A stretch of DNA of 64,000 nucleotides from Branchiostoma floridae (taxonomy: Eukaryota; Chordata; Leptocardii; Amphioxiformes; Branchiostomatidae): the NCBI RefSeq assembly GCF_000003815.2, contig NC_049987.1, positions 6,071,556-6,135,555 of the forward strand, written 5' to 3'. Below the pieces are notes generated by a model. That model saw only the letters and a list, made by a program, of their open reading frames with translations, was not told the DNA's origin and made no database searches. The position numbers and the translations under genes were made by a program. How positions within the stretch are numbered: the stretch's first letter is position 1; the number at the start of each line of letters is the position of its first letter. Of this stretch, positions 33,001 through 39,000 are shown piece after piece.

Positions 33001-36000
33001 TACCCGAGTCACGTGGCTTAGTGATTGGTCAGTCTATCCTGATTTAGGCTTAAGTCCGATCGGACGAAAATTCGATGATGTTTCTTTCTTGCATTGGAAT
33101 TATCCTTTACTTAAAATCTTTAGGGGGTATATTTGCATTCGATTTCACATATTTGCATAATGGAAGGCACCCTGAACCATAATATTCCATTGGGACTTTT
33201 TTTACATCTTTACTAACGCAATCAAGATCAATGGTAAGTGCATGATAATTGGGAGGATGGGATACATTGTACGTCAAGAGGTGTTATGAGATTTCTCCGT
33301 AAATGTTTGAGACATGGTCCTTCAATGGATCATCTTCTTCATTTGCTCGGAGATGTCTCAGAGGCTATCCTCGCCCATGCTGAAGACCTTTGTATATTTT
33401 ATTGATTTGATTCACCTGTGATTTCTATCTTTGTACATACTTGTACTTGTACATACTCACCTGTGCTGTAGACCTTTGTACATGTTTTTGTTTTAACTCA
33501 CCTGTGCTGTAGACCTTTGTACATGTTGTTGTTTTGACTCACCTGTGCTGGAGACCTTTGTTCATGTTGTAGTTATGACTCACCTGTGAGGTAGACCTTT
33601 GTACATGTTGTTTTGACTCACCTGTGCTGTAGCCCTTTGTACATGTTGTTGTTTTGACTCACCTGTGCTGTAGCCCTTTGTACATGTTGTTGTTTTGACT
33701 CACCTGTGCTGGAGACCTTTGTTCATGTTGTAGTTATGACTCACCTGTGATGTAGACCTTTGTACATGTTGTTGTTTTGACTCACCTGTGCTGGAGACCT
33801 TTGTTCATGTTGTAGTTATGACTCACCTGTGATGTAGACCTTTGTACATGTTGTTGTTTTGACTCACCTGTGCTGGAGACCTTTGTTCATGTTGTAGTTA
33901 TGACTCACCTGTGAGGTAGACCTTTGTACATGTTGTTGTTTTGACTCACCTGTGCTGTAGACCTTTGTACATATTGTTGTTTTGACTCACCTGTGCTGTA
34001 GACCTTTGTACATGTTGTTGTTTTGATGCCGTCTATGACGAACTGCGGTAACTCGACGTCATCTGACAGCTGGACTGAGTCATTTGCTGCCCAGGTGAAC
34101 ATCAAGTCTTTCGTCGTATAACCAACTGCAAGGAACAAGCGCTGTATTTAAAGCAAATTTGCTAACGCACTGTGTCACCACGATACAACATCAGCCCAGT
34201 GGCAGCCAAACTCTACAGATAGAATAAATATGACATTTGTCATAATCACTTCGTTGTATTCTAAAATGAAATGGTGTGATTATATATGCACGATGTCAAA
34301 TATGCGTGGTTTTAAGTATCTAGGTATAGGCATCGTAACAATGCAATGCCAATATCGAGTCCCAAAGGACAAATATATTTTTTTTTAGATTTACCAATTG
34401 TAGGTTTTGTAAGAGGCACTTGGAAGAAAGGCATATGGGACAATTACCACCCAGTAAGCTTACTGCCCTGCTCAACCTGAATGCATGTCAAACTAGAAAT
34501 ACTCATTCTGTTGCTTGTTTTTTTTTTCTAGCTGGCTGAAAACGTTTTGGTCACAAAGCTGGCATGCTTGCACCTTACGCTAAGATATAGTTCGTATTAG
34601 GTACATGTAAACACACGAAACTAACACACGCACGCACCAAAGTGACTTTGTTACCGACTCGCCAACCTATGTCGTAAATCAAGATGTAGATATATATACA
34701 GGTACCCTTACCTTCGTACCGGGTTTTGGGGAACACCTTTCTCTAATGCTGCTTTTGAGAATCGCTGTACAATCCTGTTCGATATGTGCTACTGAAGCTG
34801 AGCAATATGTTTTCATGGGTGGGGGCAACTTAACAATAGTTATCAACCATAGTGATAGATTCCTGGTTTTACAAGTTCCTGCAAATTATTTCTAAAGCCA
34901 ACCCAGTGGGCTAAGAGTATAAAGGCTATTGTGAATGCCTGGTAAGTCATTGGTGTACCGCTAAGGTTAGCTGTCTACACGGCTCGTTTTCAATGGATTT
35001 TATTTGTTTTTAATTATTGAGTATTTTTGTTTTTAATTAAAGCTGATGTTGATACAGTTGCATCAGTGCGTTACATAGATGTCTTGAATAAAATTTAAAC
35101 TGACTATGATTATGTCGCCGGACTGTCATGGAATGATACTTTTCGTGCGGTTGCGTGGTAGCTTTGATAATAAAAGGCTCCACGAGGTCCTGAGAGAAAA
35201 GGCGTGGATCGAAGAGAAACCGAGTGAAAGATAGTGCAGTGCGATGTCGTCCTGAGGAAGGGTATGTACAGTACACACACGTCATGCTACACGACACACA
35301 GAGATCCGTACAGATACAGGGCATCCTCAGGCTGCAGCGTGCTGGTATTGCTGACAAAGTATGATAGAAAAAAATGGTAAATGAAAAGGTAACACAGGTG
35401 ATGAGCGAATGATAAAAAACAGGAGAAATTGTGAAAGTGCGCAGAAGTTTGCATGTGCGTGCGGTCAGCAGGGCTCGGCATGGAGTGCAGCTGTGTCGGA
35501 TCACAACACTATTCAGAACGGTGTGCAGTTGCAAACGATTTCTGAACAAAGTTGCAAATGTTCCAAAAGATTAAAAAAAATGATAGAGAAACAACGAAAG
35601 AAACGTCCAAGCAGTTTAAGATGGAGACCAGTTCAAGTTAAAGATGAAATGCCACGGGCGTAAGCTCTCCAAGTTTTCAAGTAAAAACGTCGTCAAAACT
35701 TTTTGTATTTAGTCGTCAAGTCGATGACTTCATTCATTTGAATATCTTGACTTGATCTAGTGATATCGTTGTGAAATTTTTGTATTTATTCAAGTGGCTT
35801 GATATTCTTGTAGAGTTTTGTGGTGGCGGACAGTGTTTAATCACAGTTGCAATAGTCGTCTCTGCGTCAAAACTTTGATTGGTTTATAGTTTGTTCCGAA
35901 AGACTGTCCATGGCACTTCATCAGTATTGTCTACTTACAACTCTCTAGCTGCATGTTGCATTGTTGGTGGTCCATAGGAAACCTTTGTAGCAGCATTGGA

Positions 36001-39000
36001 CATGACAGCCTCAGTGTTAACCTGTGTGGGAAGTTGTCGTGTTGTTTTAAATACCTGGATTGGATAAGACGCTAACTCAGGGTAAATGCGTATCACACCA
36101 ACTTACAGCTTTCTAACTCCATCTTGCACATTTGATAGTCCATGGGGAACCTTTGAAGCTGCATTGGGCATGATAGCGTCAACGTTAACCTGTGAGGAGA
36201 CAGGCAACCGTGTGGGAAGGAAGAACGGCATTGGAGAATCTTCATTGCGATTGATGGACATTCAGTTGTTGGCCTCTACTTTTCTTTCAGTTGAAGTTTC
36301 AGTTCATTCTTTTCGCCAGAAAATATATGTCTGTCGCCTACTGTAGGAGAACCCCGACGCATAACATAAGATAACATAAAATAACATAACATAACATGGC
36401 ATGTCATGACACAACATGGCATGACATTATTTAACATAAAAATAACAGCATAGCATTACAAAACATAACATATTATAGCATAAGTAAACATAACATTACG
36501 ACATATCAGAATAAGAACAAAAGTCAACTGAAATAGAAGTCTTAAGTAGATAATAACGCAAGTAAGTCAATAACAGAATGACAAACATTGTATTGACTTG
36601 ATGTGAAATAACGAGAAACAACTGCCTTTGCTAGATCAACGACAGCCGAACAAATACACTATTAAGAAGACCTATTCCATCTAACGATATACATTGCTTC
36701 ATAATGTTTTTTTCTAAGATGAGTAATATCGGTACTTGGTAAATCTCCCTCATGTATTGGAGTTGCCGTCAAGTCATATGCATCAATCGCAAGAGGATCC
36801 TATAATGCCTGAGAGATAGAACAGTCATGGTGAGGAGGAGACACGAACCACAACAGCAACAACAACAATGACAACCAAACGTAGAGCAGGATACAGATGA
36901 GGAAAGAAAAAAGAAGTTGATTGAAGGCCGGTATTTGAGAGCGGATGCAGCATGCGGCGGTCCAAACATTGCACATTCATTCCCATAGTCTTACTTCTTG
37001 TAGTCAGTCCCAAGGTGCCATCTGATGTAAGACATGTCTTTCTTAAGCAATTCATAAAAGCCTTAAAGTTCGCATCGAAAATAAGAAGTTTTTAAACAGA
37101 TTATAACATCTAGTAAGGTGGTTAAGTAACTAAAAGTAGTTAGTAGGTAGTAATTCCAATACATCTTACTTCAATTTGGGCAAGCAAGAAGCAGAGTTTA
37201 TGCCATTACAATATTCGTACATTAAAGTTTTTAAGAAGTCAAAAAACAAAACAATAACTTAAACTATTTCAACCCCAGTATGGTTCATGTACGTAGTAGT
37301 GTAATATCATAATGCCCGCATTGTGTATACCTTAAACTGTAGAGAATATATCCTTCCGGGGAGACTCGGAGGAGTCGGTTCTGTGTGGTGACTTGGTGAA
37401 AGTTCGCTCCTTTTTCGTTGGCAAAAAACAAATCGGGAACCCATATTTTAGACAGCAGACTGGGATCGAGACTCAGACTCTCGTTCCACATGCTGAACTT
37501 CAATCGGCGGTCGCTCCACTGTTGCCGAAGGAAGATGTTTAGCTTGTAATCCTGGAGAAAACGAACAAATCCATGAATGGCTTTCATTAAAAGAGTTTAT
37601 CGTCCAAGCTACGTAATATAAAAATGTGACGAAACGCCCCCATGATGCCTTACACCTGGGAAATATTGACATGTACGTATAACCAGTGAGAAGGAATTAA
37701 GTCATTTCTTTTTCTGATAGGATTAAAGATGTTTTGATCGTCTAACTATTCCCACAATGTCGATGTGTGTATGATATAATCAAAATACGGTAACGAAGTC
37801 CAAGCTTAGGATTTGTGCATGTTTGTATTTATGACTGGATTACATATACAAATTCAAATTTACCTGAAAACATCCAAGATTTAATGATTCAACATGGCAG
37901 AGCTACTTACTAGTACTAGTAATAGAACTACTTGAAATATTATAACTATGAGTACAAACACCCTACGAGGGATCTATATGTCTATAGAGCAGGGGCACAG
38001 CCTACCATGGTAGTCTCTGCAATTGCTCCGAAGCTGTTGATGAATATGTTAATAGTCACGTTGACAGGTGGGCCTGTAGAAGTAGAAATACATAATAAGT
38101 AGGCAGCAAACGAGTATACTACCCCTTCGTCTCGTGGTTATTTTGTCATGCCAGATGTTTTACCTGTCTGAAAAGCTTAAAAGGAATCATTAGCAGAAGC
38201 AGAATATCCAGTAAGAAACAACTTAAGATACAATTTTAGAAATGAGCAGACCGGTAGATGCAGCTACGACCCCGTGGAGATAGTCATAATGGGTAATAAC
38301 CTGCTTACACCAGTTCATCAGATTGTTAGCGACACACGCGACTTACATCAACTATTAATGGCGACCATAATTCAATTCCTACGCGTTTGGTGGCAGTTTG
38401 TAATGGATAGGACAAGATTGCGCATTATGATAGGAATCGCAGGGCGGGGGCGCCTACTAGGGGGGAGGGGGGCGAGCTTTGCTCAAACCACAAACACAAG
38501 AGGCTGCGGCTGCTAGTAATCTACCAAATGTTTCTCAGGTCGCTCAGTGAATTACATAGATAAGGAATGATCTTTGTACATTTTGTGTATTTCATTGTCT
38601 TCTAAATCATACGTTTATATCTTGCTTCAGATTTCAATTGGAATCAGGGGTCAAACAAATGCAGTTTTGGTCGTTGCACGGTCTCTCAGTGATCGCCGTC
38701 TACTAGAAATGGGGGCCTAACCAACGAGTTTTCCACGCAACGCGGCAGGACTTCGATTGTCCTGCGATAGGCTTACGCGGAGGCGCCGCACTGTCTAGCG
38801 TGGACGGTAAATCGTCTTTGTTTATTGCATTTTACTCCATATGTGTTTTCATGGTAGCTGCGCCCGTCTATTATTGGCCCAAAGGCAGTGAAGGTGTCAA
38901 TAGGAGCAAAAAATGATGTATGATTGTGATTACAGTAAAGTTAAACGTACTCAAAAATTGACTGGGTTTCTACCATCGTGTCAATACCTCCTTCACATGG

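What the first reader, a model, noticed from the sequence alone, without database searches (positions are those of the whole stretch)
35939..36189. Two mutually exclusive Cys-loop exons in a glycine receptor gene
The 83-nt exon that encodes the Cys-loop occurs twice, 85 nt apart. Both copies have intact acceptors, GTAAGT donors, two cysteines 13 residues apart and the FPMD motif. Both can join exon 4 (phase 2) to exon 6 in frame. Joining both adds 166 nt and breaks the frame, so they must be used alternatively. They differ at 6 of 27 residues, including charge changes (Thr/Arg, Lys/Asn, Glu/Gln) around the loop that couples ligand binding to the pore. Human GLRA2 uses duplicate versions of the 68-nt exon 3, and insect Rdl and GluCl genes duplicate other exons. 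I do not know of a duplicated Cys-loop exon in a glycine receptor, so this may be a new way of tuning gating.
Basis: partly seen in the sequence, partly recalled or inferred. Interest (0 to 1): 0.92.

Follow-up and report, generated by a model that had tools for sequence, protein, structure and literature searches.

The report
Either-or exon pair in lancelet receptor
A glycine-receptor gene, apparently from a lancelet, carries two old and intact versions of the short exon that encodes the receptor's signature loop; only one at a time gives a working reading frame, so the gene probably makes two receptor versions, whereas a fresh copy of the same exon is lethal in mice.

Summary
On the minus strand a GlyR-alpha gene (213 of 305 aligned residues identical to a solved GlyR alpha1) has two 83-nt Cys-loop exons: 5B (36189-36107), then 5A (36021-35939), 85 nt apart. 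Either gives an open 401-residue frame from exon 2 to the stop. Using both, or neither, shifts the frame. DNA similarity stops at the splice sites. Synonymous change is saturated (pS 0.76) while protein change is small (pN 0.11); a freely drifting copy reproduced this in 0 to 4 of 5000 simulated runs per setting. So both copies have been under selection. No other close Cys-loop pair was found in this genome, but a paralog on contig C14 has a duplicated exon 6.
'A new way of tuning gating' is weaker: the reported gating residues (L142, F145, P146, D148) are identical, and all six differences fall at positions variable among paralogs. Mutants at two of these positions affect surface expression (141) and Zn2+ potentiation (151) in vertebrates. 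Assembly, surface level or allosteric tuning is likelier.
Precedents: insect nAChR alpha4 exon 4/4', GLRA2 exon 3A/3B, and mouse Glra1 cincinnati, a lethal new duplication of this same exon. No transcript evidence was available.

The parts
62252..62373 (-). Exon 2 (122 nt), start of the extracellular domain; exon 1 (signal peptide) not located
   Evidence: AG acceptor, GT donor, open frame; aligned to GlyR chains
38006..38073 (-). Exon 3 (68 nt), [23 protein letters not shown]
   Evidence: no close second copy among the 8 matches
37331..37551 (-). Exon 4 (221 nt), ends with two bases of a codon (phase 2)
36107..36189 (-). Exon 5B, first Cys-loop exon in transcript order (83 nt), [27 protein letters not shown]; pyrimidines 14/20, longest run 12
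36022..36106 (-). 85-nt intron between the two copies; using both copies requires removing it and gives a stop
35939..36021 (-). Exon 5A, second Cys-loop exon (83 nt), [27 protein letters not shown]; pyrimidines 11/20 (lowest of nine acceptors), longest run 6
33991..34125 (-). Exon 6 (135 nt), loop F to start of loop C
33378..34026 (-). 41-nt minisatellite (15.8 copies) spanning the exon 6 donor; of 15 donor-like sites only the first keeps an open frame into exon 7
32368..32582 (-). Exon 7 (215 nt), TM1-TM2 with the PAR motif (P250 A251 R252 in alpha1 numbering)
30903..31055 (-). Exon 8 (153 nt), TM3
20809..21018 (-). Exon 9 coding part (210 nt to stop), TM4

Best explanation
It is a pair of tandem-duplicated, mutually exclusive exons in a lancelet GlyR-alpha gene, old enough that synonymous sites are saturated. 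SHOWN: both copies are intact and interchangeable in frame; any message with both or neither is frameshifted; both have been kept by purifying selection for most of the time since the duplication. INFERRED: each transcript takes one copy. Exon 5B, with the longer pyrimidine run, is the likelier default; exon 5A, with the fewest pyrimidines of the nine acceptors, is the likelier regulated choice. Splicing of 5B to 5A is discouraged by the 85-nt intron and the weaker 5A acceptor, and any such message would probably be destroyed as nonsense. The two subunits share the glycine site and gating core. They differ on the variable faces of the Cys-loop and its flanking strands (positions 135, 141, 149, 151, 153, 155), so they most likely differ in assembly, surface level, subunit pairing or allosteric tuning rather than in transmitter or basic gating.
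For: Anatomy and frames. Significant homology confined to the exon and its splice sites within about 100 nt of flank. pS 0.76 (11.7 of 15.3 sites) against pN 0.11 (7.3 of 65.7); 6 amino-acid and 10 synonymous-only codon differences of 27, no stops. One-copy-neutral simulations reach this in 0 to 4 of 5000 runs per setting over 14 settings; both-constrained runs in 0.04% to 36%. Six columns are invariant in the 14 best other lancelet Cys-loop exons and both copies keep all six; the six positions where 5A and 5B differ are all among the 11 of 27 columns that hold four or more residue types in those 14. GlyR identity: best PDB hits are GlyR alpha chains; glycine-site residues F63, R65, S129, E157, S158, F159, Y202, T204 kept. 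Splice-site comparison. Insect alpha4 precedent: exon 4' assembles less efficiently. D141A lowers surface expression of alpha3 without considerable effect on its currents.
Against: No transcript was available. Loss of one copy in the recent past cannot be excluded from one genome. Judged by amino-acid changes and absence of stops alone, a young drifting copy is not rejected (24% and 30% of runs at 10 mutations per copy); it is the synonymous count that rejects it. L in 5A at position 141 and M in 5B at 151 occur in none of the 14 other exons. The acceptor difference is modest: exons 6 and 7 have 12/20 pyrimidines against 11/20 in 5A, and by longest run 5A (6) exceeds exons 2, 3 and 7. The steric argument is soft: yUnAy matches lie 24 and 42 nt from the 5B donor and A-rich candidates, by eye, up to about 65 nt, which spans the usual limit (limit recalled, not tested). 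No special RNA structure (z 0.25, 58 of 100 shuffles fold at least as well). With 27 codons all evolutionary estimates are coarse. The functional difference is inferred from vertebrate mutants, and the Zn2+ site itself is absent here.
Confidence: 0.82

Rival explanations
1. One copy is a recently dead or never-used relic, and the gene makes a single isoform.
For: No RNA evidence. Exon 5A has the fewest pyrimidines of nine acceptors (11/20). Exon 5B is on the longer branch in a weak 81-nt tree (0.28 against 0.065). By amino-acid changes alone a young neutral copy is not rejected.
Against: Intact frames, donors and acceptors in both. A copy drifting neutrally since a duplication old enough for the synonymous differences is rejected (0 to 4 of 5000 runs per setting). 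The six columns invariant in 14 other exons are kept in both.
Confidence: 0.1
2. The pair works mainly as an on/off switch: regulated inclusion of both exons makes nonsense messages that lower receptor level, and the small protein differences are incidental.
For: Using both copies gives a stop at the junction. The same outcome, in mouse cincinnati, abolishes the subunit (F159X).
Against: Such a switch needs no conserved protein sequence in the second copy, yet the pair shows strong protein constraint and both copies keep the six invariant columns.
Confidence: 0.06
3. Assembly artefact or two haplotypes joined in tandem.
For: Lancelet genomes are highly polymorphic (recalled).
Against: The flanks compared do not align, synonymous sites are saturated, the stretch gave one match in the genome, and the pair sits within one continuous gene.
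Confidence: 0.01

Closest known systems
Insect nicotinic receptor alpha4 exon 4 / exon 4' (Drosophila, Apis, Anopheles, Tribolium, Bombyx; passages of PMC2064938 and PMC2045683 seen)
   Same: Tandem-duplicated alternative exon that carries the Cys-loop cysteines and changes residues near the loop; isoforms differ in assembly efficiency
   Different: Nicotinic receptor, another subfamily; as described the exon also takes in loop E, whereas here the 83-nt exon holds only the Cys-loop and its flanking strands
Vertebrate GLRA2 exon 3A / 3B (passages of PMC3484359 seen)
   Same: Alternative versions of one exon in a GlyR alpha gene
   Different: Another exon (exon 3; no close second copy found here), two residues changed instead of six
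Mouse Glra1 cincinnati allele (passages of PMC3484359 seen; original paper not held)
   Same: Tandem duplication of the same 83-bp exon 5 in a GlyR alpha gene; using both gives a premature stop
   Different: New mutation with both copies in the transcript; null and lethal within about 3 weeks. Here the copies have diverged, sit 85 nt apart and are kept
Insect Rdl exons 3 and 6, GluCl exon 3 (passages of PMC2064938 seen)
   Same: Alternative duplicated extracellular-domain exons in anion-selective Cys-loop receptors
   Different: Changes near loops D and F, not the Cys-loop

Membership tests
Glycine receptor alpha subunit | Neur_chan_LBD and Neur_chan_memb domains | tested here: met
   both isoforms: LBD E 5.2e-52 and 1.5e-51, membrane region E 3.5e-42 in each
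Glycine receptor alpha subunit | Closer to GlyR alpha than to GlyR beta or GABA-A subunits | tested here: met
   (60 of 111 matches shown): alpha chains 494-527 bits, beta 374-387, GABA-A up to 337; PDB chains only, isoform 5B only, no tree built
Glycine receptor alpha subunit | Glycine-site residues | tested here: met
   F63, R65, S129, E157, S158, F159, Y202, T204 identical; F207 is Tyr
Glycine receptor alpha subunit | Second disulfide C198-C209 and PAR anion motif | tested here: met
Glycine receptor alpha subunit | Gated by glycine, passes chloride | not testable with these tools
   needs expression and recording
Mutually exclusive tandem exons | Adjacent homologous exons with the same length and phases | tested here: met
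Mutually exclusive tandem exons | Inclusion of both or neither is non-productive | tested here: met
Mutually exclusive tandem exons | Both copies under purifying selection | tested here: met
   recent loss in one copy not excluded
Mutually exclusive tandem exons | Transcripts with each copy alone exist | not testable with these tools
   no RNA data held for this genome
Mutually exclusive tandem exons | Known enforcing mechanism (steric, docking RNA structure) | tested here: inconclusive
   85-nt intron and pyrimidine-poor 5A acceptor fit steric exclusion; no special structure
Amphioxus 'mirage' minisatellite (exon 6 donor array) | Tandem repeat spanning an exon-intron boundary | tested here: met
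   definition from passages of PMC3087553

The most novel reading that the evidence does not exclude
Lancelet glycine receptors have repeatedly diversified their extracellular domain by tandem exon duplication (exon 5 in this gene, exon 6 in the C14 paralog). A very short intron between the copies turns a lesion that is lethal in mammals into an either-or choice, convergent with insect nAChR alpha4, Rdl and GluCl.
Probability: 0.5. Interest if true: 0.62.

Novelty: new member of a known kind. Interest (0 to 1): 0.52.

Why it matters
The same 83-bp exon duplication that makes a lethal null allele in mouse Glra1 (cincinnati) exists here as an old, selected gene feature. Comparing the two shows directly what a new tandem exon needs in order to become a mutually exclusive isoform instead of a frameshift. 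It also gives a natural pair of GlyR subunits that differ only on the variable faces of the Cys-loop and its flanking strands, with the gating core held constant, which can be tested in one recording experiment, and it extends a pattern known from insect receptors to a chordate glycine receptor.

Tried and rejected
Zn2+ tuning as the purpose of position 151 was considered because T151A attenuates Zn2+ potentiation in GlyR alpha1, but E192, D194 and H215 are I, T and N here, so direct Zn2+ tuning is unlikely. RNA docking structures: seven inverted-repeat pairs between exons 4 and 6, none joining the flanks of the two copies, no shuffled control, and no unusual folding. Rfam at gathering threshold: nothing in the window. 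Third copy of exon 5 in the window: none; after the two copies the next best tblastn hits have E 0.40 and 0.81 (the lists for 5A and 5B were shown whole, the rest of that output was cut). Second Cys-loop exon in five closest paralogs: none in the six fetched 9.9-kb stretches, which span exon 4 to exon 6 in all five genes (the C7 gene needs both its stretches); only weak hits at E 0.20 to 0.33 besides the known exons. My first motif scan used a wrong spacing and its zero result is void; it was redone. Genome-wide pairs, read by eye from the lists: Cys-loop 42 and 44 matches, exon 4 32 matches, exon 6 26 and 11 matches, exon 3 8 matches; these are lower bounds, because only the tool's first-look candidates are scored. 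Exon 7 was not surveyed; exons 8 and 9 were not searched.
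Full report
What is there. The gene lies on the minus strand. Eight exons of a typical GlyR-alpha gene were placed: exon 2 at 62373-62252, 3 at 38073-38006, 4 at 37551-37331, 5 in two versions (5B at 36189-36107 and 5A at 36021-35939), 6 at 34125-33991, 7 at 32582-32368, 8 at 31055-30903 and the coding part of 9 at 21018-20809. All have AG acceptors, and all but the terminal exon have GT donors. 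Exon 1 was not located. With either version of exon 5 the frame is open from exon 2 to the stop, 401 residues. The protein matches the two Pfam domains of the family, its best solved relatives are GlyR alpha chains (isoform 5B), and it is identical to one of them at 213 of 305 aligned residues, keeping the glycine-site residues F63, R65, S129, E157, S158, F159, Y202 and T204, the second disulfide and the PAR motif.

The exon pair. The two 83-nt exons are 85 nt apart, have GTAAGT donors and AG acceptors, and the same phases. Each can link exon 4 to exon 6. A message with both has a stop immediately after the first copy; a message with neither is also out of frame. So the pair is mutually exclusive by logic; that it is so in the cell has not been shown.

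Is it old and is it kept? In about 100 nt of flank on each side, significant DNA similarity begins and ends at the splice sites. Synonymous sites are saturated (11.7 of 15.3 differ), while 7.3 of 65.7 non-synonymous sites differ. In simulations where one copy drifts freely (the other held at omega 0.05), the observed outcome (at most 6 amino-acid changes, at least 10 synonymous-only codon changes, no stop) came up in 0 to 4 of 5000 runs per setting, over 14 settings; with both copies constrained (omega 0.1) it came up in 0.04% to 36%. Without the synonymous criterion a young drifting copy is not rejected (24% and 30% of 4000 runs at 10 mutations per copy), so the age of the pair carries the argument, and a recent loss of function in one copy stays possible. 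In the 14 best other lancelet Cys-loop exons (of 40 other matches), 6 of 27 columns are invariant and both copies keep all six. The six positions where the copies differ all lie among the 11 columns with four or more residue types; L in 5A and M in 5B at two of these positions are seen in none of the 14. A small tree of 7 sequences and 81 nt puts 5A and 5B together with support 82 and gives 5B the longer branch; with so few sites this is weak, and by amino-acid identity 5A is closer to two paralogs (23 of 27) than to 5B (21 of 27).

How common is it? In the searches of the host genome with each copy (42 and 44 matches) the only same-strand pair lying close together is this one; the next closest same-strand neighbours are about 10 kb apart. 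Exon 4 (32 matches) and exon 3 (8 matches) show no close pairs. Exon 6 shows one (26 and 11 matches): the paralog on contig C14 has two tandem versions of exon 6, 156 and 138 nt, 55 nt apart, with the same phases and 30 of 45 aligned residues identical. Both lengths are multiples of three, so there the frame alone would not forbid using both. Thus two different exons of the extracellular domain have been duplicated in two lancelet GlyR-like genes. These counts are lower bounds, because the tool scores only its first candidates; exons 7 to 9 were not surveyed.

What the two versions would change. The six differing residues correspond to alpha1 positions 135 (T in 5B, R in 5A), 141 (Q/L), 149 (Y/H), 151 (M/Q), 153 (K/N) and 155 (E/Q). 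The residues reported to matter for gating within the loop, L142, F145, P146 and D148 (passage in PMC12457638), are identical in both. In that paper, on GlyR alpha3, D141 mutants left glycine responses essentially unchanged but D141A lowered surface expression. T151A attenuates Zn2+ potentiation in alpha1 (passage in PMC11654702), but the Zn2+ residues E192, D194 and H215 are not conserved here. The insect nAChR alpha4 isoform with exon 4' assembles less efficiently (passage in PMC2045683). I therefore favour an effect on assembly, surface level, subunit pairing or allosteric tuning over a change in basic gating; this step is inference.

How the choice may be made. Exon 5B has the longest pyrimidine run of the nine acceptors measured (12), and 5A the fewest pyrimidines (11 of 20); the margin is small, as exons 6 and 7 have 12 of 20, and by longest run 5A (6) is better than exons 2, 3 and 7. 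In the 85-nt intron the two yUnAy matches are 24 and 42 nt from the 5B donor; A-rich candidates nearer the 5A acceptor were seen by eye. Steric exclusion is possible but unproven. There is no sign of a regulatory RNA structure.

Relation to what is known. Alternative tandem exons in Cys-loop receptors are well known: insect nAChR alpha4 exon 4, alpha6 exons 3 and 8, Rdl exons 3 and 6, GluCl exon 3 (passages in PMC2064938) and GLRA2 exon 3A/3B (passage in PMC3484359). The alpha4 exon already includes the Cys-loop cysteines (figure legend). The most instructive comparison is the mouse Glra1 cincinnati allele: a new tandem copy of the same 83-bp exon 5 appears in the transcript together with the original, gives F159X and kills within about 3 weeks (passage in PMC3484359; the original paper was not held). 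Five literature searches were aimed at an earlier report (5 of 5, 1 of 1, 25 of 59, 4 of 4 and 12 of 101 papers listed); no listed title or abstract start reports duplicated Cys-loop exons in a lancelet glycine receptor. The other five searches had other aims. Only open-licence papers are held. I therefore file it as a new member of a known kind.

Verdict. Functional mutually exclusive exons are the best explanation at about 0.82. The claim of a new gating mechanism is not supported by the residues that change.

Noticed in passing
window 33378-34026, minus strand: A 41-nt minisatellite (15.8 copies) made of the end of exon 6 plus its donor: 15 donor-like sites, 14 of them identical CAGGTGAGT, but only the first keeps an open frame into exon 7. 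This fits the amphioxus 'mirages' (passages of PMC3087553); how the splicing machinery picks the first of 14 identical donors is a testable question.
   Followed up: partly
L056 7451-7296 and 7240-7103 (C14:14276102-14276450, minus): A GlyR-like paralog has two tandem, divergent exon 6 versions (loop F region), 55 nt apart, with the same phases; 30 of 45 aligned residues identical.
   Followed up: partly
L053 991-1625 (C9, plus strand): The paralog about 127 kb away has a tandem repeat (period 121, 5.2 copies) that starts in the end of exon 4 and repeats its donor region, apparently another mirage.
   Followed up: partly
window 36190-36230, minus strand: Just upstream of exon 5B the intron contains CTTCCCACACGGTTG, nearly the same as the acceptor of exon 5A (CTTCCCACACAGGTTAA); it could be a relic of a further copy or of the duplication breakpoint, or chance.
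   Followed up: no
window 36360-36496: Degenerate 5-nt repeat (CATAA, about 28 copies) in the intron upstream of exon 5B.
   Followed up: no
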